Shown here: piece by piece, positions 8,268 through 50,246 of the stretch
How positions within the stretch are numbered: position 1 is the stretch's first letter
Layout of the letters: each line of letters opens with the position of its first letter
NCBI RefSeq assembly: GCF_010093535.1
Contig: NW_022985194.1
Span: 720,586 to 784,585 of the forward strand
From: Lindgomyces ingoldianus
Lineage: Eukaryota > Ascomycota > Dothideomycetes > Pleosporales > Lindgomycetaceae
Length of the DNA stretch: 64,000 bases
Direction: 5' to 3'
Notes under the pieces: model-generated
What the model saw: only the letters and a program-made list of their open reading frames with translations
What the model was told of the DNA's origin: nothing
The model's database searches: none
Translations under genes and position numbers: made by a program

Positions 8268-11200
8268 CTAACATCGATGTATGCTTCTTGCCCCTAAAAT
8301 CTTCAGTGCCGGGACATCTCTCTCAATCATTTTGTAGAACCAATTCCGTAGTTCTACCACAATCAACGAATCCACCCCCAAATCGGTCATATTCTGTTCC
8401 CTACTAACGGATCCACCTGGTAGCACTAGAAGAGTCTCTAGCTTCTCAACGAAGAAAGCAGATACCACATCTGCGATCTTTGGGGCCGATTCGAGGTTCG
8501 CAATCTGATCTTTTAGGCTTTGTTGCGCTTTCGTCGCTTCTGCAGAATCTTGAGTTCCATTATGTTTCGTGAAATGGCAGAATCTAGGGTCCATTTGCCA
8601 AAAGAGTAAGTCAGGGCTATCAGCTCGGTATCGGCTTAATCCTGTTGTTAAGTCTAGTGGCTGATCCGGTACATTGGGTCGTCCGGCAAGAATAGCTTCG
8701 TGAAACATGTGGTGAAGGTCGCGTTCGGAGATCGGTGGATACCCCTCCCTTTCTAGTCCCGCGTATAAATTCTGCTTCTCACGAAGTAGAAAACCAAGTC
8801 CGTAGATGACCCCGATATTTAGCACTGATCCTGCTACTCCGTGTGCTCGTCTATTTGCGGCGAGACCATTCATGTACATGTTCGCAGCAGCATAATTCGA
8901 TTGCCCTGGATGACCACCTATCGCGGCAAAAGAAGAGGTCATGATAAAGAATTCCATCTCCGGGTCGCTGAATACACTGTCCAAATTTTTAGAGCCAATC
9001 GTCTTGGGATGTAACACTCGATTCCACGTTTTCAGTGTCATTTGTGCGAAAACTCGATCGTCTAGAACCATGGCACCATTCACGACTCCAGCAACTGGAG
9101 GCATGCTCTGAGATAGCTTAGCCTTGAAGCGTCTTACATTGACGATATCAGTGACATCGAGCTTCTCGATTGCAATTTCTACCCCATGCGTTGAGACGAG
9201 TTCGTCCTTCCATTTCGGGTGCATGTTTGGATTGCGACTAGCGAGGACAATGTGTTTTGCACCAAGGTCGATGAAGAATCGGCTGAGGCTTTGTCCCATA
9301 TCGCGAGTGAGGCCGACTAGGATGTATGTTCGATCGGGTCGGAGCATTCGGTGCGAGACGAGCGGACTTACTATTCGAGATACCATACGTTCTGCCTTCC
9401 AGTCTATTATGGTAAAAAGCGGGAATGGATGACGAGTTTCGAGCAAAGACGGTACAGAAATAGTGTTTGTATGGAAGGACCGCGGGGCTGTATTGTCAAG
9501 GCCGTCTAAAGCAGCGGAAATAGCACCGACCCAAGAGAGCCGCGCGCTAGAAAAGCCTCCGTCGCCAATGTTGGTGTTTGAGTCGCTCAGTACAGGGGGT
9601 GGCAGGAACTGACAGGCTTCTGGAAAACAGTGTCGAATCTTCTGGGAGAAATCATCATTCTCGGGAAGGAACGAGACGACAAGGGCATTGAAGGATGATA
9701 GCAGGGCTTTAATTCTGGAGATTGGTGTTCTTGGGTGAATGCCGAGAGTTCGCACACCTAGGTTTGGCGCTTCATCATTCGCGCTAGTCCTGACAATGGA
9801 TATCCGAGCCTCATAAATTTGTTGAATGGCGTGAAGGGTATACGTATCTGGTTCGATTAGAACAAGACTCCGCCCCCTAGCTTTCCGTGCTATGGTTGCG
9901 GCAATTGCAAATCTAGTGACACTGTTTAACAAATCCAGAGGCCTGGTTTCCGCTTTTAAACTATACACTCGGGTAGATGGCATGGAGATATATGACGAAT
10001 TTGCTGCGGAGGGCGCAACGACAAGATTCCCTGTCGTCATATCATTTCCGATGCAGATGTAGGCAGCGTAGTTATCAGTTATTGGAACAAGATTTAGAGA
10101 ACTATACGAAACCTGTATGGTGGAGATGTTGCCGTTAACATCCCTCGGTGGTAGATTCTCCAGGGCAGCAGTTTCCAAGGTCACTTGTTTCCCGTTCTGT
10201 TTGACGGTAAGAGCCGTGTTGGCTGAAGTCACTGAGTCGGACACTATTCGCCGAGATGAATTAACGCGACTATTTCCAGGTTCGAATGGCAGCACTCGTG
10301 ATATCAAGCGACGTCCATCTTCCATGAAGATCTCCCTCTCAGAGATCCACGATCTACCATCTGGATGCCAGTGGGATACACCGTCATCGACGATCATTCC
10401 TAAGAACATTTCCGCAACGAGGAGAGAACTCCCCTCAGTCCTCTCCAAATCGAGGTTGCGGACCGTCAAATTAGGAATCTCGGCAGCAATGGTTCGTGTA
10501 AAGCCAAATGTAGCTGCATGATCCGGATTGCTGTATCTTGCACCAAGGGTCAACCACATAGCCTTCATTTTCGGTCGCATGAGGTCTTTCAGCTGGGTAA
10601 TTCTCTCCTCGGTCATGTTTGACATGACGCTTTCGTCTAGATCCGCTGCGATTATGGTGGCCGTGCATTCGCCAATATCCTCAGCCTCGAGTGTATCAAA
10701 GGAGTCGCGGAGAGTAATAGTATGGCAGAATGAACCTAAGAGTTCTTGCAATTCATTCCCCAAGGAAGATGTGTATGCGCTCGTACCGCCGATGATCAGG
10801 AGATGTTCGACAATCTCACGACTTTCTTCTTCCAGGAGACGGTGTGGTATGGCTAACTGAGGATCTATTGCTTGTCTGACAAAGATAGAGAAGCCGGAGG
10901 GGAAGACTTGGTTGGAGTACCTAGCGACTTGGCCAAAATTGCAGTTCTCTAAAACGTCCGGCCACTCGGATGGCGTTGGGAGTTCGCTAGGAAAGGCGGT
11001 CGGTAATCCATGGAGTCGATCCGTGAGAACAATATTAGGTGAGTCGAGCAGAAGCAAGAAACCTCCAGTCTTCATGATCGACCTGATCTCTCTCATGATT
11101 TTTCCGGTTGATTTACTTTGCAGAATCGATGCCGAAAGAAGGACAAGGTCGAAGGACACGGCGGGCGGGGTTTGCTCGATCAAATCTTTGTTCAGATCCA

Positions 11201-14200
11201 CATCCACCGTCGTAACATAACTTCGTCGCATGTTTAATTTGTCGATATCTCTCGGCGATGTCACTGAGGGGGTAAAGTTGGCAACCGTGAAACCTCCGAG
11301 GTGCAAGCGAGGGTTTCGTAAAATTTGCTTCGTGAGGCCCGACTCTGGATCAGACATATCGAGTACCTGTATTTGTGGATATTTGTGAGAGATCTGCTGG
11401 ATGACTCTACCAACGTGCTCATTGAAGTGATGCATACTGTGCCCAGAGGCAATCACATGAGGCAACAACTCCAGAAGCAATTCTGAACGTGTTTTACCAA
11501 CGGCACTAATTAATTCCAGAGAAGAAGAATAGTCGGAGTCGAACATGAGCGATTGAAGGGAATTCTCATCGTCGCTGGCCCATCCATCGTGGTGTAGGAA
11601 AATGAAAGGGGTACGTGCCACACTCGGAAGAGCAAGCTTGAATGGTATAGCTTTGTTATTCTTTCGGAGGATGAAATTTGTTACGCGAGCGCATTCTTCA
11701 ATAAAGCTAGGGTCATAGCCAGAGTCTTCACCGTTATAGGATTGAACAATTTCGTCTTCAGGGTCGACATCAAGAACCGAATGGAGATAGAGCTCATGAT
11801 CATCCTCTGGTCGTGTGTTTGCAAAAGCGGCGACTACTAATCCTTCCACTTGGATCTCGGTGTCACCTTGTTCGTTAGCAATGCCGATGTCGACTGTGAT
11901 GATGGCTTTGGAGGTAAGTGAAGGGTTTCCGATGTGGGTGCAATATGAGTCGACCCGCAAGAGCTCATCAGTGATTGGCTTGGGTTGATTACAATATGCC
12001 AAGTTGAACGTCAGGCTTTGAATTGATACTGGAAGAAAAGGCGTCCACAAAGACCTATCAAGTGTTAGATTTATCGTGCACAACGACGGTGGAACTTACT
12101 TATCGCCGGCAAAGGCGTAAGATAGAAAGGCGGACTGAAAGCAACTATCCAATGTCGCGGGACTGACGGAAAGTTGGGTAGTATCTTCAGAGTGGTATCT
12201 CTTCAGTGTAGTAGCGGCATAGTTGAGGCGTCGGTCGATAGTCTGCAATGATCTGAAAGGCCCGCTGTAAACCAAACCAGTTTCGTCCATCATTCTATAG
12301 AAGGCTTTGGTATCAGCAGGTAACGTTTCGCTGTTCTCTGTCTGCCTCGGGGGTAGCAAGCCCAGCATTGGTTCGCCTAAAACCATTCTCATGTTCCCAT
12401 GCATGTTCATTTTTGGTGTGGTGGTTCCATCCGCTGGACAAGAGGTCAAGGTAAAGGATGCTTCGATCTCGGGATCCGATGGGCGGTGGGGCATAATTTG
12501 TAAGGAGAACAGTATCTCAGTCCCTTGTGAGTTGGGCTCTAGATTAATACCACTTTCAATTGTTAGATTGAGAAGTTGAACACTCGTCGCAAATTGCTTC
12601 CCAGCTTTGAGATGTACACGAGCAGCATCCAAGGCCATTATGCAATAGGCGGATGCTGGAACAAGCGCCTGGCCTTGGAACTTATGGTGGTTTAGCCATG
12701 GTACTTTATCTACCTTCAGAATATTTCGCCAGCGGAGGTTATGTTCGTTGTCGTCGCGAGTGCGCACTCCTAAAAGCTCATGTGGAGGATCGCTGCGGGA
12801 ATGGTATTGACGAGATATCCGGGTCTCTCGGTAATGGATCTGAGAGTGATCCCACGGGTATGACGGCATATCCGAGATCTTGCAACGTGATAGGTCATCT
12901 TTTGGTGAGCTTTGGATATACTTGGGAATGTTAATGGCGTGTGGCCCTGAGGTGCACCATATGGAGCCGATGGATTCCGCAAATGCAACGCTGTCGTCCT
13001 TGTTGCGGTCAAGAAAGCCAATGTAAGGAGGAACTGGGCTAATGGTTGGTTTCATAGTTTGTATGGAAGGCCCTTTCAGCGCCGGGTGCGGGCCAATCTC
13101 GACGACGCAGTCAAATGGCCCGTGTTTGGCAAGTGCGGATTCGAGTGCATCGCGAAACCGGACGGAGTTAGTCATATTATCCCTCCAGTACTCCATGGCT
13201 ACGCTCTGATTCAACATTTCCCCATACCCCTCCACACTAGAAGACCATCGAACGTCACTCCGGCCGGGGAGAGATTTTATCCCACATCTTCGGAGGGCCT
13301 CAATATAAGCGGCTGCTGGTTTCGTCATATGCGGAGAATGATAGGCCGTGTCGACAAGCAATCTTCTCGCAAACTTTCCAGATTTCACAAGAGCAGAACT
13401 TGCTGCGTCTATCGACTCGGTATCACCCGATAGAGTCACGCTTGAAGGACTATTGTTTGCTGCAACAAACAGTTTTCCTTCAAATTGCGGAGCCTTACAG
13501 AATTCGTCGGCTTCATCACTCGACAGTCCTACTGCAAGCATAGCTCCTTTCTCGCTGTTCGTACCTTCAGCGAGATGAGCAACTTCGCCTCGATAATAAG
13601 AGATCAAGATTGCATCTTTCGCACTCAGCCTTCCAGCTGCATAAGCAGCACCAATTTCCCCCGAAGAATGACCAACCACGGAATGGAATAAAACTTCAAG
13701 ACTTCGGAGTAGATCAACGAGCCCAATTTGCAAGGCAGTACACAGTGGCTGAGAGACGGCTGCTTCGTGAACACGTGACATGCCTTTCTCGGCAAATATC
13801 TGCTCTTCGAGAGACCATTGCGGGGGGTCTCTGCAAGCCTTCAGGATCTGATCCAATTTCCGAATTGATGATCGGTAGACTTCGTTTGACAAGAACAAAG
13901 TGCTTGACATCTTCGGCCATTGTGCACCTTGTCCGGTGAAAACAGCGAGGATGCGGGGCTGTCCTTGCACACCTGCAGCTCGGAAGCCAAGCTGGTCGGT
14001 ACTGATACTGAGAACGTCATCTAAGGCCTTGATCATTCCCGGCGTTGTTGTTACCGGGAGAGAGAGTCTATACGGGAAACAAGTCCGAGATGAGAGCTTC
14101 AATGCAAGCCGGTTGCAGTTAATGTGAGAATTTTTCAGAATGAAGTCTTTTAACAACTCAATTGATGATCTTAAGGATCTCCGGGAGTTGGCCGACAGCA

Positions 14201-15704
14201 GAAGAGGTACCGGCCTCGAGGATTCCTTCTTTTTCGTCGGCGTGTCCGCTCGATCCTCCGAAATCGTGAGAATATGTTTCGCATGAATTTGGGAATCGAA
14301 GAGTTCCACGATCGCATGCGCGTTCGTTCCTCCAAACCCGAATGAATTCACACTAGCTCTAAGTGGCTGTCCGGTTGGTACTTGAGGCCATGATTCCAGC
14401 GTTGTGGGAATACGAAGATTCTTGGAGAACGGGCTGACGTTGGGGTTCAGGGTATGCATGTGCAGATTGGGTGGAACTTTTCCATGCTTCATCGCCTGAA
14501 TAACCTTGAGCAGGCCGGCAAGCCCTGCCGCCCCTTCGGTGTGGCCAATAGCGGTTTTCACAGATCCAACAAGCAATTTGCCTGGCCCCTCAGGTTCCCG
14601 CGATCCTCCAAATGCCCGAGATTCAGTGGTTACATCGAATCCTTTCGCTACGCCCGAACCTTCGGGAGGCGAACTTGCGATGGGTTCAAAGAAAGCCTCA
14701 TAAATTGCAGAAGCCTCACGTGGATCTCCAGCTTGGGTTCCTGTTCCATGTGCCTCAAAATACTGGCACCTGTCCGCTGCATTTCGCAAATCCAGTCCCG
14801 CACGAAGATACGTGTCTTTGATCAAGTTCGCCTGAGCTGCAGGGTTCGGCAAGGTGATGCCAGGGGTTCTTCCATCCGAATTCACCCCTGTTTGTCGAAT
14901 GACAGCCTCAATCTCGTCGCCGTCGGCAAGCGCCCTGGACAACGGCTTAAGGAATATGGCCGCGACTCCTTCTCCGCGCGCATAACCGTCGGCACTGATA
15001 TCCCACATGCGACATTTCCCTGTAGGACTGAGCATGTGTAGACTGGCTTCAACAATAAATTGCTCGGGAGTGAGAAGCAAATTGGCGCCCGTAACACAGG
15101 CCATTACACTCTCCCGAGACCGGAGGCTATGGACCGCCTGATGCAACGCGACGAGACTTGAGCTGCACGCCGTATCGATGGTCATAGACGGCCCTCGGAA
15201 GTTGAAAAAGTACGATACCCGGTTCGATATCAGAGATCTCGCGTTCCCTGTTGCATAATATTGGCTCGCAGTCAACTCATCTCGCCCGGAAAGGGTGTCG
15301 TAGTCGGCGGTCATGAGTCCAGCGAAAACCCCGACATTCTGCCCAAAGTATCGATCGAGTGTGTATCCAGCAGATTCTAAGGCTTCATACACAACTTCAA
15401 GTGTCATCCGCTGCTGAGGATCCAGTGCTTCGGCTTCTCGAGGTGTGATATTGAAAAACGCTGCATCAAACTCTCGGTGGTCCTGCTCCAGCCAATAGGC
15501 CTTGATCGAGTTCGTCGTTCCGTGATACTCTCCGTCTGGGTGATAGAAGGCATGAGGGTTGAAGCGCGTGGTCGGCACTTCTCGCGACAAGTCAGGAGGG
15601 GCCGATAACAGTTCCCAAAACTTGGAAGGTGAAGTGGCACCGCCGGCAAATCGGCAACTGCTCCCAACGACTGCAATCGGCTCTGATGGTGGAGGGACGA
15701 ACAT
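8268..15704 (-). CDS. highly reducing polyketide synthase, PKS-NRPS-type, no NRPS (KS-AT-DH-MT-KR-ACP)
   Basis: Model: complement(join(8268..12054, 12100..15704)), 2,463 aa. The 45-bp GT-AG intron joins YAFAGDK in phase to SLWTPFLP inside DH. The start is the first ATG (15704), just before EPIAVVGSSCRF. KS: Cys180 in DTACSSS, then EAHGTGT and GHTEGAAG histidines. AT: Ser680 in GHSSGEIG. DH: His1007 in HKFQGQALVP and Asp in LDSCFQ. The MT region (about 1330-1460) lacks the SAM-binding GxGxG, having LDMSDPESG instead, so it is probably inactive. No ER. KR (about 2100-2290): GLTRDMGQS replaces the usual GLTGDLGQS, but the Ser/Tyr (TSSFAAIGG, QSNYAAANM) are present. ACP: Ser2431 in GVDSL. The protein stops 32 residues later, within the segment that normally leads to the condensation domain of PKS-NRPS hybrids. 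Closest type by my reading is the PKS half of PKS-NRPS enzymes. No tailoring genes flank it. Confidence 0.9.
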
Positions 15705-16922
15705 CTTGAAAGCACGATATGGAGAGTACTGCAAGAACAAACAAGCAGGCGGAAAGGGTGAGGCTTTTGTGCGCCTTACTCCAATGTTGGAACCTACCAG
15801 GAATCATGAGACAATTAGTACAGTGATATCGGGATCGAGGGGTCATGGCTTTAAGCTGCATAATGCCGCTCGCAAGTCTTCAAGACCTAACATGAGATCT
15901 TGACCAAATCCTCTCGCTGATTACATCGTGGATTCGTATGCGGTTGTTTGCCCATATTTAGGAGTCAACAAGCACTCCACGTGGAATGTCGAATTATGCC
16001 ATCCACTCGGGTCCCGGCTAAATTCAGCTTCAAGGAATAAAGAACGCCACCAATATAGGACTGCGTCTCAGCCCTAATTCTTATCGAGTGTTATCGGCCA
16101 AAAACATGCAGCGGTTGAGATCGCAAGGGTACATACCAATAGCGAGGTCCCACTACCGAGACTAGGGACTTGCATGCCTCTCTGACCAGGAAGCCGGAAC
16201 GGGAAAAGGAAAGCAGAAGGCTATCCCACCGTCATCTATAAGAACCACTGCTCAAAAGAGAATCACATCCTCGGATGATTTCCTCTTTCATGCTGCGCGT
16301 GGCCCCATGTGAGTGCTAGGAAATCTGGACCGTCCCGTTCCGAGGCCCTAAAGCCAATCGAAAATCTCACAGGCTGGAATCATTGGATGAAAGCAGGAAT
16401 TCTGCAGGAACTATCTCGCGTGATTGCTTACGCTTTTTTTAGGATTACCCAATAGCCTTCGCCACCGTCATTGCTGTCCGTATGTAAACGAGAACGAGGT
16501 AACTGCATTGCACTTTGAAGCATACATCTCAGCACATGAATCTTATCTGCACAAGATTTATCACACGCCCCGGAGAAAATCCTCTTGGTATTTAGGGACT
16601 CATAAACAACCCAGTGTTCAAATCCTCTACCTTATGTGGAGAGAATTTGCCAGGTAGCGTTAATTACACAGCGCTGAAGTTTAGAGGTTGGCCAAACGCG
16701 ATGTTCACAGTAAATCGCCACAGCTATCTTCGGCTGATCCCACTTCTGAATCACTCCATTATTCTCAGCTGCTTACTCAAACTCCGGTGGACATGTGGGG
16801 CTGATGATTGTCATCCTCAACTGACTTTTCCTCCATTTGCCTGACGTTTCCACATTTCTTCATGTGGTCTCACTCAAGGATGTGGTGTTCGCAGGATCGT
16901 TGTTAAGATGGATTTCGAATCT
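15705..16922. other. intergenic, PKS 5' flank
   Basis: About 1.2 kb upstream of the PKS start. No gene seen on either strand. Nothing identifiable as a pathway-specific regulator or tailoring gene lies here. Confidence 0.4.
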
Positions 16923-20066: not shown

Positions 20067-20189
20067 GCAGAAGCTGTCTAGGTGGTTTGTGGTGGCATGA
20101 AGGATTCTATATTGAATAACCGTCAGGTACTCTTGAAATATGTGCTAGCAGTCGCTATATGGGGTCCCCAAGTGTCTTAAGCCTGATTC

Positions 20190-20391
20190 TCTTGCATGAG
20201 CTGAGGAGGGGACATATGGCAAACGACTCGACAAGGGAGCGAGATCCAAACAAGGTGGAATGAGTGTATTGTAAGGTCTGAGGAGCTCGATAGAGCTCTG
20301 AGCTGACTATATACTGTACGAGATAGGAGCTATGCCTAATGAGTGAATAGTGCAGTGCATGGGTATGATATCGCGTGAGACACGTGCGACA
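20190..20391 (-). repeat. 3' LTR of the copia element
   Basis: Read on the minus strand, it starts TGTCGCACGTGTCTCACG and ends CATGCAAGA. By eye it is identical over all 202 bases to the copy at 23399-23600. It is bordered on the left by the target duplication GATTC and on the right by the polypurine tract. Confidence 0.9.
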
Positions 20392-20400
20392 CACCCCCCT
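20392..20400 (-). other. polypurine tract of the copia element
   Basis: Minus-strand AGGGGGGTG lies directly against the 3' LTR (which starts TGTCGC at 20391). This is the expected position for the plus-strand primer of reverse transcription. Confidence 0.7.
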
Positions 20401-20512
20401 AGCTTTGACGAAGTGAATACTGAAGCAAAGCTGTACAAAGAGAAATAATAGACTGCAGGTGTACAGTAGTGCACTTAAGAGTGCGAAACAGCAAAAAAAG
20501 AAGTTAGTAGGC

Positions 20513-22801
20513 TTAGGCTTTAAAGCTAATGTTAGTAGAGTAAGCCTTTAGGGCGTCACTTAGGCGGACAAGGCCTAGTTGTTTAATAAATGCTTAATGC
20601 TTTTGTTAAGGTAGAAACTTAGTAAGGCCGTTAGGCGGCATGTCTGCAGTAGGGATCTAGTGTATGCAAATCCTTCTTTCCTAAGGCTCATAATTAATTA
20701 GAGCTGTGTGCTAAGTAGTTATAGCTTGCTTAAGATTATTATTATTAGTCTTAAAGTCTATAGCTGCGTCGCCTGTTCGCGGACAGACCTTAATAACTAA
20801 TAGTGGCTTGTTGTTAGAGCTATTATCTAGCGTGTTGCTAGGGTTATGTTAGGAGACTAAGTTAATATTAGTTTCCCTTTTAGAGTTAACCTCTAGGACA
20901 GTTTCTAGGGTTATTTTAGGAGAGGGCATATAATAGAGGGAGCCTTGCTGGCGCTTTTCCTGCAGCTAATTGCTAGGTCCCACATCGCGCTCCTTAAGCT
21001 CTAGAAGCTCTTCTGTAAAATTAATGTAATCCTTATTGTTTAAGGTATTATCTTACGCAATAAGTTGCTGTGCAAGGTCTTTAGCAGCTATAACTATTAG
21101 CAAAATAGATCTAATGCATAGATCCTCTGTGCGTGATACTAGGGCCTAGTGACCCTTAGTTTAAGTAGTAAAGCAGATTAGTGATTAAGTGCCATTATAA
21201 AGTTATTTATATATAAGGTTGTCTCTAGAGTTAAAATGTATGTCCTGTCCTTAAGAAAGAGATATAAGACTAGTAAACATGCTAGGGATGTAGGCTACAT
21301 TATTTAGGTTTATCTTAGTAGGTCCTCTAGGACCCTTTACAGTAAGTGTGACCGTGCCCTATGCCAGTATAGGAAGGTGTTAGCTGCCAGCCCTAAGTTA
21401 GTCTAATAGGGATAAGCTCTAAGTCTATTAAAAGTTAGCTAGATTATTGTAAACATAGATGTCTGCTCTAGGATCTAAGATCTATAAGTGCTAGAGAGGA
21501 TTCTCTTTGTTATCTGGCTCCACAGCATGTTCCTTACTCACAAGGTTTGTTATAAAGCTTATAAGAGTAGCTGCTAATTGCCTAGTGCTAGTTAGAGCAT
21601 TAGGTAGATTCTAGTTAGTAGAATTATTAGGAGCTAGCGTCTTAGAGATTGCATTTAGATGTAGACTAGGTTAAGACTGTAGGCTTTAATTATACAATTA
21701 AGTTGCGTAACTAGACAATTAAGTTAGCTAATAATAGTTGCTATTGTTGCCGCCTCTTCTGCGTCCTCTTCCTTAGTTTAGTTAGTTTCTTAGTAGTAGA
21801 GGAAGGTCTCTGTTCTTAAGCCGCTTAGCTTCTGCTTTAAGCTAAGGATTGCTGCTTATCTGCTTGTTGTATTCCTGCTAAAGAAAAGTAGAGATCTAGA
21901 ACCCTTTAGGTCTTAGTTAAGGATTGTTAATTTTGCAGTTTTTAGATTTATAGCGACCTTCACAGAAGTCGCATATAAACTGCTGTTGCTGCTGTTCTGG
22001 TGTGGACAAACGTCCTTAGTATGTGGCGAAACTGCTGTGGGTGACGCTAGGTTGCTAAGCTAGCTGTGATTATTGCTAATTTTTAAAGAACTCTAGACAG
22101 CTAGTAAGGAAATTAGGTAGATCCTTATTAGTCTGTTTATGCTAGACTAGGATTAATTAGATAGCTGCTGCGCATCTAGGGTTTATGTCTAAAATTGCCA
22201 ACACAAAGTTATAGTGTAGTTAATATTCTGTCACATTTAGCAGGTAGACTAATTTAGCATTAATATATGCGTTCCTGTATGCTGTAATCTATTAGTCCTA
22301 TTTTATTTTTAATAACTACTTCCTTGCGCAGTTGTATGCTGTTTGTGCGCTCTGCTTAAGCTGCTTGTTAGAGGGCTCTAGGATTGCCCTTAAGGCCTTT
22401 AGCCTTTTATAGATTGTTTCTTTGTCCCTAATAATAGGGTAGTTTAATGTGTTAACAGTGCTCTTAATAAGCACATAGATGTCTAATAGGGCTTTGTGTT
22501 AAGCTTAGAATAACCTTAGATTATTACAGTAGTCTTTACAGGCTATTATGTAGCATCGCTGATTGTTAAGGTTTAGGTCAGAGACTATAGGGTTGGGACT
22601 GAGCTGGGTGCTGCCTGTATGAAACTTCGCGACCTCAGGCCTCTGTGGCATAGTGTTAACCAGGAGATTTTCTAGTAAGAGGTCTAGATTAATATACTCC
22701 CAGACATATTCTCTAGTTGCCTGTGTCTTGATGCGACTAAACTAGGGCTGCCAGTCGCTCTTTTTGGTAAGCTGTACAGAGGCATTAATGTTTAAAGTCA
22801 T
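20513..22801 (-). pseudogene. Ty1/copia gag-pol remnant (gag, zinc knuckle, protease, RNase H tail)
   Basis: One continuous frame of 763 codons from ATG 22801 to TAA 20513. I counted more than thirty in-frame stops by hand, all TAA or TAG and none TGA, where Gln (CAA/CAG) or Trp (TGG) is expected. Gag reads KKSDWQP..FSRIKTQATREYVWEYIN and LKALRAILEPSNKQ, typical of copia gag. A zinc knuckle CDFCEGRYKSKNC lies at about 21936-21973. The protease is recognisable around 21300-21500 (ILDPRADIYV in place of the family's D-S-G-A site, then GTVTLTVKGPRGPTKI). The C-terminal RNase H end reads IPTADMPPNGLTKFLP (about 20620-20665). Integrase and reverse transcriptase are absent. The lack of frameshifts shows decay purely by transitions. 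Confidence 0.85.
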
Positions 22802-22828
22802 CTTTCTGTGTGTTGATAGAGTAGGACG

Positions 22829-23305
22829 AAATAGTTATTGTTTAGTTAATTAGGCTCAGCTAGTGAGCAATCTGTGATTAGTATGTTTTAGAATAGACAG
22901 AAGGTTATTGTCTAGTTGATTAGGCTCAGCTAGTGAGCAATCTGTGATCAATTTGTTTTGGAATAGACAGAAGGTTATCGTCCAGTCGATCAGGCTTAAG
23001 TGGTGAGCAATCTGTGATCGAAATGTTTTAGAATGGACAGAGGGTTATTGTCCTGTCGATCAGGCTCAGGTGGTGAGCAATCTGTGATTGATATGTTTTA
23101 GAATGGACAGAAGGTTATTGTCCGGTTGATTAGGCTCAGCTGGTGAGCAATCTGTGATCAATTTGTTTTAAATGGACGGAGGGTTATCGTCCAGTTAATT
23201 AGGCTCAAGTGGTGAGCAATCTGTGATTAATATGTGTAGAATAGACAGAAGGTTATCGTCTAGTTAATTAGGCTTAAGTAGTGAGCAATCTGTAATTAAT
23301 ATGTG
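22829..23305 (-). repeat. 70-bp tandem repeat array, about 7 units, in the retrotransposon leader
   Basis: The string GTGAGCAATCTGTgAT recurs at 22863, 22933, 23003, 23073, 23143, 23212 and 23281, so the period is 70,70,70,70,69,69. Each unit contains GGCTCAgctggTGAGC flanked by GATT/AATC, which can fold as a stem-loop. The array lies between the primer-binding site and the gag start, the place of packaging signals in retroelements. Units differ mainly by C/T and G/A transitions. Confidence 0.9.
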
Positions 23306-23368
23306 TCAAGGTTCGCGGGGCCCTAAAGCTAGATGCAAAAGCTAACTGTGCAGTGGTGACTAGAGGAC

Positions 23369-23398
23369 TAGTCAGGAGCGCGACTCCGGGCTCATAAC
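23369..23398 (-). other. half-tRNA-Met primer-binding site
   Basis: The plus strand here reads ...GAGCGCGACTCCGGGCTCATAAC, which is a tRNA D-arm 3' side, an anticodon stem (CCGGG) and the loop CTCATAA (anticodon CAT) plus one base, i.e. the 5' half of a Met tRNA up to about nucleotide 39. Its complement is therefore a primer-binding site on the element's RNA, directly against the LTR at 23399. Copia elements are known to prime with a 39-nt 5' fragment of tRNA-Met. No 3' tRNA half follows, so it is not a tRNA gene. Confidence 0.75.
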
Positions 23399-23600
23399 TC
23401 TTGCATGAGCTGAGGAGGGGACATATGGCAAACGACTCGACAAGGGAGCGAGATCCAAACAAGGTGGAATGAGTGTATTGTAAGGTCTGAGGAGCTCGAT
23501 AGAGCTCTGAGCTGACTATATACTGTACGAGATAGGAGCTATGCCTAATGAGTGAATAGTGCAGTGCATGGGTATGATATCGCGTGAGACACGTGCGACA
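23399..23600 (-). repeat. 5' LTR of the copia element
   Basis: Identical to 20190-20391 over 202 bases by eye. It is bordered on the right by GATTC (23601-23605), matching 20185-20189. Confidence 0.9.
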
Positions 23601-23605
23601 GATTC

Positions 23606-47120: not shown

Positions 47121-48854
47121 CTAGAGCGTAGCTTCTGGTCCAGTCCCATCGAGATCATCGGATGCTTTGGAGTTGAGCATTGCCAAAATGTCCAGAAGTC
47201 TTCGTCCGTAGGTTCTAGCGCGTTTTCTGATCGCATCGTTGCTGGTGGTTAGCCTCAATTCGAGGAGAATGGTCCCTACTCGCCGGATTCGTTCAACCTG
47301 CATGCACGGTCAGAGACAACCAATGACGAACGTGAGAACACTAACTGTTGGCTCCCCCTTTACTTGGAGGTAAATGAATGGAATGTCATCTAACGTCTGA
47401 AGGAAATCCGAGATCATCTCAATGTTCTTCATGGACAAGACGAGAGGATCGTCGGCCAGCCCCGTGATGTCCGCCATCCTACTCTGGGTACTTTGTCGTA
47501 AAATAACCAGTCTGAAGCAATGGAATGTTACGAGGATGGTGCATCTCTGGACCCAGAAAGACCGCTTTTGAAATCTGACACCCTCGCTATCGTCATCGGA
47601 CGTCTCCAGGTTGGACACATACAGCCAGTGAGGGAGATCGTCCAAGAGACCTGTGTATTCGAAGTAGTCCTGCGCGAGTCGTGCCCTGTCCTGTTCTCCT
47701 TGAACCTGTGCACACTTTCGTATTTCCAGGACCAGTTTAGCGGCGCTCAACGAGACGCGTCGAAAGAGATGGAAGCCAGCCAAGAGGCGATCTTCAAATG
47801 CTTCATCATACCAAGGCTTGCTGGGGTCCACCAACGGTGCCTCTTGGCCAGAGTCAGGCTGCAGGGTCAACCCTCCATAGAAGAGAGGTTCGAGCAGCAG
47901 GGCTGTGCGGTCTCGGAAAGCGGCAGCCACGTGGTCCGAAGCATACATGTGCCAGAAATTCAGACGCAGCAACTTGCTTTCCACAGGGTCAACACGGGGT
48001 AGCCTCTCCTCGCTGTACAGGTGGAGCGTCTGGGCAATGAGGGTGGCTTGGCCCTGGACGTGCCATGCGGCGCCGTGCTTCCCCGTCATGTGCTGAAGGG
48101 CAGTGGAGTGGAAGACACGGATGACCATGGAAGCCGAGTTCGGGTGCTCAAGGTCATAGTCCTCGAAGGACCTCAAGGTTTCCCGGGAGGCGTGGAGAAA
48201 AGGCTTCACAAGGAGATGGCGGTACGGGATTAGCGAGTTGGGCATCACCGACGCAACGGACGCGCAGACGGCGGTAACCAGAGCGAAGCCTCTCAAGAGA
48301 GCCACTCGCTCTTGCTCGTTGGCGGCATCGTGATGGGGGTTGGGGAGCGCGTCGGAGAAGAATAGAGCGGCATTGGCGCGCAGCGTGGGCTCGTGCACAA
48401 GGGGAGCGGTGGGAAAAGTGTACTGCATATACAGGTCGATGCAGTAAGTGACTACTTGCAATAGATTCAGCGACGGCAGGACGGCCTGTAGCGACACGGC
48501 GAGGCCATCCTGGATGCCGCGCGGCGACCGGGCCGAGTCGGGAGATGCGATGGCGGGTAAGTCGACATCGGCAGGCTCCCACGAGGCGAAGCCGTCCGCC
48601 GTCGTTACCGTCATCATCGGCGTGGGGGCCATCGTCGGCGTGGGGGGCATGCTTGCCGGTGTCTGGGGGGCGGGCGACGCTTGGATGGGCGACCGTGGGA
48701 GCATCCGGGGACCGCGCTTCCTCTGGGGAATTGTGTAGGCGCAGTCGAGGTGCGAGATGCGGCAATTGGCGCAGGGAATCGACGCGTCGCACCTGACCTT
48801 GCGCCGCTTGCAGCTGTCGCATGCCCGGCTCGCCGACGACCGTGAGCAGCGCAT
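47121..48854 (-). CDS. Zn2Cys6 (Gal4-type) transcription factor
   Basis: Nuclear fungal-specific regulator. Model: complement(join(47121..47297, 47346..48854)), 561 aa, one 48-bp intron. Zinc cluster Cys12-x2-Cys15-x6-Cys22-x5-Cys28-x2-Cys31-x6-Cys38, followed by a basic linker (PQRKRGPR), a Pro/Met/Thr-rich linker, and a fungal-trans middle region. The latter includes YCIDLYMQYTFPTAPLVHEPTLR and KLLRLNFWHMYASDHVAAAFRDR, which resembles sugar-metabolism regulators of the XlnR/maltose/quinate type in general layout. Start is the first ATG before RCSRSSASRACDSC. Upstream GTG-initiated sequence is rejected. It lies 5.4 kb from the GH2/GH35/permease cluster and next to the GH3 pseudogene, so it could regulate sugar use, but no direct evidence exists. 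Intact. Confidence 0.88.
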
Positions 48855-50246
48855 CGTGGACTGTGGATTGCTGTGGATAAGGAGAATTGCGCACGGAGAA
48901 AAAGCGACGCGCTTGTTTTGCAAAATTTCCAGCACCCTGCAAGCGCCATCCCCGCATTTTCATGACTGAGAATTGTTGCCACGGATGCACTCCACACCAC
49001 TGCAAGCGAACCATCACGCGACGACGGGATGCAGGCGGGAATGCGAGGCGGCGTGGCGTGGAAAACAGGGGAAGCTGGCTCCGCTAGCGGCTCCAGTCAT
49101 GTCAACATACACAGTATGTACAATACGAGTGCGGAGAGCTCGAATGCAGTCCCCTAGCGAACAAATCCCGCCTTGCGCATCTGGCAGTGCGCCCCCAACT
49201 TGAAGCACGTGATTTTCCACGTCGCAATTGTATACGGAGTATCCGAGTAGCCTCCTCCCAACATGGCCGAAAACTGTGCGCCCTGGGATAATCTGGAGGT
49301 ACCTCGATCTCTTCGTAACCTCGTACCCCCGACTACTCATTATTATTTCTGTTGCGCTGTTAGTGGTATTATATGCAGCTGGAGATTCACCCTATCGCAA
49401 CTGTCAACTAACAATTACAGAAGCGTCATCGCGTCATCGTTCAGTTCGTCGTCAACATGCTCTTGACCCTGTAACCATATTCTTGCCCATAAAACGCCAT
49501 CTCGTCTTATCCCTGCTTTAGGATTAGCATATCCAATCCTCTACATCATGCTATGCTTTATGCAACTATCACGAATAATACATAAGTTGTGGTAGAGAAC
49601 ACAAATCCGCCAAGAGGTCGGTTCATTCGGCAAGCCACAGCCGCAAAAGTAGACATGTCGGTATGATTACGTAATATCAAGGCATACCCTTTTGCAATGT
49701 TTGGATTTTTACCCATAGTTCTATCCTATCTCCGGCTAGTTTGCCACATTCATCGGCCTTGCTACTTTGGCGGTGCAGCTTGACGCAGTTACTCTCAGAC
49801 AAGCACCCATTTCCCGAGCTGTCGCTCGAACTATTGATCTGTCTATTTATTCCTACCTCCCTGGCTAACAAGAAATGGGTGCATCCCCATGGATAAGCCT
49901 TAGCAGTATGAATAATATGATGCGGCGCAAGTGTCGATGGTTGTGATCAAACAGTGAGGCGCAGAGAGGCTTCTTGTGGTAAGCGTGTTATGTTCTTGGC
50001 ATCTTGCAGGACCCTGTTGCCTAAGCCCATGGACTGAACAACACAACTTTTACTCATGGCAGCTCTTTACTTCCTGTCTTTACCAGGCCTTTCGGGTAAG
50101 GGTGGTTCGGCCGGGCCTGTCCAAACTACGAACCTACGACCTAGCACCAACGACTCACGGAGGCAGCCTTGCTCGGTAGCTCGAAAAGGCAGGGTGGGAT
50201 TGCCGAAAAGAGGGCTAGATCGTATCTTCAAGGAAATACTTCCACA
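48855..50246. other. intergenic, TF 5' flank to HET gene
   Basis: 1.4 kb without a recognised gene. The first part is upstream sequence of the zinc-cluster regulator. The last part leads into the HET gene. Confidence 0.4.

What the first reader, a model, noticed from the sequence alone, without database searches (positions are those of the whole stretch)
20185..23605. Coding-dead copia element with identical LTRs: moved after it was mutated
The two 202-bp LTRs are identical and the GATTC target duplication is perfect, so insertion is recent. Yet the single internal frame (22801-20513) carries more than thirty TAA/TAG stops and lacks integrase and reverse transcriptase. Since reverse transcription makes LTRs identical at insertion, the interior mutations must predate the last jump. 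A RIP-killed element has apparently been mobilised in trans.
Basis: partly seen in the sequence, partly recalled or inferred. Interest (0 to 1): 0.85.

Follow-up and report, generated by a model that had tools for sequence, protein, structure and literature searches.

The report
Short copia element, mutated in place
A crippled jumping gene in a freshwater fungus has clean ends and a riddled middle, most likely because the fungus's repeat-mutating defence hits the middle first, so the clean ends do not prove that it jumped after it was mutated.

Summary
In detail: two identical 202-bp LTRs, a perfect GATTC duplication, 48 TAA/TAG stops in frame. The genome is Lindgomyces ingoldianus (Pleosporales). 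The element belongs to a deletion-derivative family without reverse transcriptase: 12 of the 15 copies read across junction J2 share it, and eight of these have both ends, with eight different 5-bp duplications. So the family moved in trans, after losing its enzyme by deletion. That this copy moved after RIP killed it is not supported, though not excluded. No assembled copy matches its interior above 93%. The same stops recur in long copies, because RIP here nearly saturates one motif (pyrimidine-C-purine). At rarely hit sites it shares only a few more changes with close relatives than expected. Clean LTRs beside saturated interiors are common here, LTR hits rise with interior dose (rho 0.78, 17 copies), and 61 of 89 LTR hits in paired LTRs are private to one LTR, hence later than insertion. 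Best reading: recent trans-mobilised insertion, then RIP in place, with RIP reaching LTRs late; LTR identity does not date the stops. The sharp under-hitting of LTRs is unexplained.

The parts
20185..20189 (.). left target-site duplication GATTC
20190..20391 (-). 3' LTR (element orientation), 202 bp, TG...GA on the minus strand; 0 of 23 RIP hot sites mutated
20392..20401 (-). polypurine tract with a run of six G next to the 3' LTR; one C>T change against un-RIPped copy L014
20513..22801 (-). remnant gag-protease frame plus a C-terminal RNase H stub, 48 stops (gag and RNase H named by eye and from L038, not by a profile match)
20677..20682 (-). deletion junction J1 (about 1.7 kb with reverse transcriptase missing), microhomology TTTCCT
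21050..21068 (-). deletion junction J2 (about 1.0 kb missing plus a 27-bp deletion between GTCGC repeats)
22819..23304 (-). leader with seven tandem units of 69-70 bp
23386..23398 (-). primer-binding site: 13 nt matching the interior of a tRNA-Met gene (half-tRNA priming inferred)
23399..23600 (-). 5' LTR (element orientation), identical to the other
23601..23605 (.). right target-site duplication GATTC

Best explanation
It is a non-autonomous, internally deleted copia-type LTR retrotransposon. Its family was founded by one element that lost the reverse-transcriptase block and a second block but kept LTRs, primer site and polypurine tract. Full-length relatives supplied the enzymes (movement in trans is shown for the family by shared junctions and different target duplications; the helper is inferred). 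The window copy inserted fairly recently. RIP, acting at pyrimidine-C-purine sites, then mutated it in place (inferred). RIP reaches LTRs late, after the interior is nearly saturated, so both LTRs stayed clean and identical.
For: Junction J2 is shared by 12 of the 15 copies read across it (window, L032-L035, L039-L042, L045, L047, L049; not L031, L036, L038). Eight of the 12 have both ends, with eight different duplications. Changes are C>T on both strands at YCR: window CCA 63/79, TCA 52/70, TCG 36/47, CCG 24/36, against GCA 2/81. The window copy has the lowest dose of the 17 copies tabulated (50/881 rarely hit sites). LTR hits track that dose: rho 0.78 over 17 copies, 0.91 over the 14 with un-RIPped flanks. 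In seven LTR pairs 61 hot-site hits are private to one LTR and 28 shared, so RIP acts on these elements after insertion. At L041 the left LTR has 0 private hits and the right 10, while hot sites in the first 50 bp beside the left LTR are mutated 5 of 5; the right LTR there is split by a nested insertion.
Against: The drop of RIP at the left LTR border is sharp: 22/30 hot sites in the first 50 bp of interior against 4/134 in the left LTR, in six copies picked for clean left LTRs, counts typed in. I have no tested reason why RIP stops there. In Zymoseptoria LTRs are prominent RIP targets (PMC10294615, passages). At rarely hit sites the window copy shares more than a site-effect model expects with its closest relatives: L032 18 against 12.0, L033 32 against 27.4, L034 38 against 29.7, L035 40 against 31.7, L045 23 against 13.9 (z 1.0 to 2.7); a cruder estimate puts the commonly inherited part at 0.23 to 0.62 for these five. 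Two more distant copies show a similar excess (L042 43 against 36.0, L049 42 against 35.6), others none (L031 13 against 14.5, L036 21 against 28.2, L041 36 against 35.4). Some inherited RIP is therefore possible. No un-RIPped short copy is assembled.
Confidence: 0.66

Rival explanations
1. One reading: a parent copy was killed by RIP with LTRs spared, was still transcribed, and was carried to this site in trans with its stops.
For: Identical LTRs, intact 13-nt primer site, family known to move in trans. Excess sharing with close relatives. L033 is very close by transversions (3 in 2113) and lacks only 2 of the window's 158 mutated hot sites and 13 of 45 rarely hit ones, as a further-mutated sibling would. 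[quoted passage not shown]
Against: No sibling above 93% among 33 of 33 candidates for a 1-kb interior piece. For the leader the best long match is 87%; only 73-128 bp un-RIPped stubs at contig ends reach 94-100% (40 of 40 candidates scored). With low-dose relative L032 hot-site sharing is at expectation (151 against 146.0). The parent would itself need RIP that spared its LTRs, so LTR sparing is needed anyway and then explains the window copy without a later jump.
Confidence: 0.2
2. LTRs were mutated with the interior and later restored by gene conversion from the many clean solo LTRs.
For: 12 of 28 LTR loci examined are solo LTRs with duplications, with 0 to 2 hot-site hits each; homology would end exactly at the LTR border, as the sharp left border does.
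Against: Non-C>T variants are shared by both LTRs of a pair in 30 cases and private in 12 (seven pairs; L034 has none shared to judge by), and both window LTRs carry the rare G168. The right side shows a gradient, not a sharp border.
Confidence: 0.06
3. Assembly artefact: the two LTRs were filled with one consensus.
For: The assembly breaks inside near-identical copies (six contig ends) and has gaps in some fetched loci.
Against: No N in the window; both LTRs carry G168, which 45 of 50 LTR rows lack.
Confidence: 0.03

Closest known systems
Ty1/copia LTR retrotransposons with half-tRNA-Met priming (copia, Ty5; recalled)
   Same: 5-bp target duplication, LTRs, polypurine tract, 13-nt match to the interior of tRNA-Met, RVT_2 in a long relative
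   Different: window copy lacks reverse transcriptase; LTR ends TG...GA
Non-autonomous deletion derivatives of LTR retrotransposons (recalled as a class)
   Same: keeps cis signals, lost enzymes, many insertions
   Different: keeps a gag-protease remnant; interior heavily RIPped
crapaud of Podospora anserina (PMC10787394; passages and section 11 read)
   Same: full-copy LTRs fall into RIPped and un-RIPped groups; solo LTRs mostly un-RIPped
   Different: here clean LTRs are shown directly beside saturated interiors
RIP of LTR elements in Zymoseptoria tritici (PMC10294615; passages read)
   Same: C>T changes in LTR retrotransposons
   Different: there LTRs are prominent targets and the context is CpA; here LTRs are under-hit and CpA and CpG are hit alike after a pyrimidine
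Aspergillus nidulans MATE (CpG and CpA) and Microbotryum Ty1 (TpCpG) RIP-like bias (PMC2621366; passages read)
   Same: CpG as well as CpA hit, or a preceding base that matters
   Different: here both together: C or T before, A or G after

Membership tests
Ty1/copia LTR retrotransposon | direct LTRs with short target duplication | tested here: met
Ty1/copia LTR retrotransposon | copia-type reverse transcriptase in the family | tested here: met
   L038 RVT_2 E 8e-20; absent from the window copy itself
Ty1/copia LTR retrotransposon | integrase upstream of reverse transcriptase | tested here: inconclusive
   no integrase profile match in the three L038 pieces; position of the 1.0-kb block fits
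Ty1/copia LTR retrotransposon | primer site matching a tRNA | tested here: met
   13 nt match to the tRNA-Met gene in L052; two longer patterns had 0 matches
Non-autonomous deletion derivative | several insertions share the same deletions | tested here: met
   12 of 15 copies with J2, 8 of them with both ends and distinct duplications
RIP | C>T on both strands in repeats, context-specific | tested here: met
RIP | CpA preference as in Neurospora | tested here: not met
   CpA 131/316 and CpG 72/170, governed by a preceding pyrimidine; RIP-like in kind, variant in context
RIP | dependence on RID methyltransferase and the sexual cycle | not testable with these tools
   C-5 methyltransferase domain matches exist on C1 and C36; role untested

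The most novel reading that the evidence does not exclude
LTRs are shielded from RIP in this fungus. RIP destroys the genes of a copy but leaves promoter, primer site and integration ends intact, so each killed copy stays a competent substrate for trans-mobilisation, and RIP selects for short parasites of the full-length element. The first half fits the data; that such killed copies actually move is not shown.
Probability: 0.25. Interest if true: 0.62.

Novelty: new member of a known kind. Interest (0 to 1): 0.38.

Why it matters
LTR identity is the standard clock for retrotransposon insertions, and 'identical LTRs, dead interior' is easily read as movement after death. Where RIP under-hits LTRs that inference fails, and shared stop codons fail too because the hot motif saturates. 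The family is a good test case for why LTRs escape RIP.

Tried and rejected
Shared stops as evidence of descent: rejected, since they recur in long copies and no window change was unmutated in all nine comparison copies. Smooth edge effect as full explanation: fits the right side, not the sharp left side. LTR conversion and assembly collapse: see rivals. Strand-specific cDNA hypermutation: rejected, C and G at CpA are both hit (0.48 and 0.39). Primer site searched with longer tRNA patterns: 0 matches. The first dose correlation used hand-typed values with small slips and is replaced.

Full report
Observation. The window lies in contig C33 of a 68.4-Mb genome in 99 contigs. A protein frame at 47310-48935 is 100% identical over 91% of its length to one of Lindgomyces ingoldianus whose longest contig has the same length as C33, 849,911 bases, a member of the Pleosporales. 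The element has identical 202-bp LTRs, a GATTC duplication, a primer-binding site and a polypurine tract, and reads on the minus strand. The first-reader frame has 48 stops, 26 TAA and 22 TAG.

Family. A search with a 1-kb interior piece gave 37 matches from 33 candidates, all scored; the best other match is 93% identical. I fetched 20 stretches that cover 24 of the 36 other matches; 12 matches, the best of them 84% over a third of the piece, were not fetched. Three long copies (L031, L036, L038) carry two extra blocks; in L038 one holds a reverse transcriptase domain. L037 also carries block sequence at J2. Junction J2 of the short form, a deletion of about 1.0 kb plus a separate 27-bp deletion, is present in the window copy, L032, L033, L034, L035, L039, L040, L041, L042, L045, L047 and L049, 12 of the 15 copies read across it. 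L039, L042 and L049 differ at J1. Eight of the twelve have both ends, each with its own 5-bp duplication: GATTC, GATTG, TCAAG, CATGC, TAAAG, TATAC, GAATC, CTTAG; L032 has an assembly gap inside. Such junctions are unlikely to recur, so a form without reverse transcriptase was copied many times: mobilisation in trans. L035 has an interior near L045 (4 transversions in 1428) but LTRs of a divergent subfamily, so lineages also exchange parts.

Mutation pattern. Differences between copies are mainly transitions. Against L038, the least mutated copy of the interior, the window copy has C>T at 175 of 232 YCR sites and at 50 of 881 other sites, on both strands. L038 is not pristine: it has stops at 15 of 47 of the window's stop codons, so these figures understate RIP. 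Heavily AT-rich DNA next to two copies shows the same context: in L033 and L040 the unmutated fraction is 0.00-0.03 at YCR, 0.08-0.33 at purine-C-purine and 0.40-0.53 at purine-C-pyrimidine.

Are the stops inherited? Stops at the window's codons occur in L037 39 of 39, L036 46 of 47, L031 42 of 46, L041 48 of 48, L033 45 of 47, L034 46 of 48, L032 41 of 48. L031, L036 and L037 are of the long form, so recurrence is no evidence of descent. A model with a site effect, fitted on nine other copies, expects the window copy to share rarely hit changes as follows, observed against expected: L032 18/12.0, L033 32/27.4, L034 38/29.7, L035 40/31.7, L045 23/13.9 (z 1.0 to 2.7). Controls: L031 13/14.5, L036 21/28.2, L037 26/23.1, L039 36/34.0, L040 36/34.6, L041 36/35.4, L042 43/36.0, L047 34/31.7, L049 42/35.6. 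A cruder count gave the same picture, and a moment estimate from it puts the commonly inherited part of the window's rarely hit changes at 0.23-0.62 for the five closest relatives, 0.00-0.16 for L031, L036, L037, L039, L040, L041 and L047, and 0.27 and 0.63 for L042 and L049. Ordinary substitutions on the common stem must account for some of this; the window copy and L038 differ by 24 changes in the reverse direction and 22 transversions. At hot sites the only low-dose short relative, L032, shares 151 against 146.0 expected, and long copy L031 146 against 144.0; for the saturated relatives hot sites are uninformative. Complete inheritance does not fit any copy seen: changes of the window copy that are absent from the relative number 24 hot and 32 rare for L032, 2 and 13 for L033, 1 and 12 for L034, 5 and 7 for L045. 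How much predates the last jump stays open.

Why the LTRs are clean. In the window copy hot sites are mutated 0/23 in each LTR, 1/5 in the first 50 bp of interior, 94/106 in the middle (interior 700-1500), 9/25 at 2200-2428, 7/11 at 2880-2940 and 0/7 in the last 67 bp. Clean LTRs beside saturated interiors are also seen in L033, L034, L044 and the left LTR of L041. Heavily hit LTRs occur where flanks are RIPped (L035, L036, L047) but also where they are less or not so (L039, L042, L046). Leaving out one haplotype site, LTR hits rise with interior dose: rho 0.78 in 17 copies, 0.91 in the 14 with flank score 0.15 or more (of the window and 20 fetched loci it omits L038, the reference, L043 and L045, without LTR, and L050, a divergent inverted pair; related copies are not independent points). 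In seven LTR pairs 61 hot-site hits are private and 28 shared. The left border is sharp (22/30 against 4/134 in six copies chosen for clean left LTRs); this remains unexplained. Solo LTRs have 0 to 2 hot-site hits, as reported for Podospora (PMC10787394, section 11).

Active source. Six contig ends (L012, L013, L014, L015, L017, L020) carry one LTR haplotype with un-RIPped interior stubs and different flanks, which points to recent, near-identical copies that the assembly could not resolve. In the scan for the RNase H region 135 matches were listed of 303 candidates; of the nine best only L038 is free of stops, and its frame is broken elsewhere. More distant stop-free frames exist (43-59% identical, on C84, C52, C7, C15 and C28). 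Which element is the helper is open.

Literature. In the listings I recognised no title or abstract start about RIP-killed elements moving in trans or LTRs spared by RIP. I read passages of PMC12543289, PMC10294615, PMC4858203, PMC7296669, PMC2621366 and PMC4352252, and passages plus section 11 of PMC10787394; the rest I saw as listings. [quoted passage not shown] RIPCAL notes slightly more RIP towards the ends in one repeat family (PMC2621366), both against a general edge effect. Neurospora is CpA (PMC12543289 and PMC10294615 passages); TpCpG is known for Microbotryum and CpG plus CpA for A. nidulans MATE (PMC2621366 passages). I found no mention of YCR in what I read; the search was not exhaustive.

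Verdict. Observation confirmed; trans-mobilisation supported on other grounds; the order 'mutated, then moved' not supported, probably reversed, and not excluded.

Noticed in passing
window 20392-22820; L033 5800-9800; L040 5800-9901: RIP-like mutation prefers pyrimidine-C-purine (CCA, TCA, CCG, TCG) rather than CpA alone; seen also in DNA beside this element.
   Followed up: partly
L012, L013, L014, L015, L017, L020: Six contig ends stop inside un-RIPped copies with one LTR haplotype: a recent burst that the assembly could not resolve.
   Followed up: partly
L035 3227-6700: Interior of the window clade with LTRs of a divergent subfamily: a chimera of element lineages.
   Followed up: no
window 22819-23304: Seven tandem 69-70-bp units in the leader; role unknown.
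   Followed up: no
L031, L033, L034, L041, L049 left LTR border: RIP falls from most hot sites to almost none within about 15 bp at the 3' LTR border, but fades gradually on the 5' LTR side.
   Followed up: partly
L033 and L034: This pair shares the most rarely hit changes above expectation (109 against 86.2, z 3.1) and one LTR haplotype: the best candidate in the family for RIP before a jump.
   Followed up: partly
window 8268-15740: Two abutting minus-strand open frames (1271 and 1214 aa) that read like one polyketide synthase split by an intron or frameshift (family name recalled, not searched).
   Followed up: no
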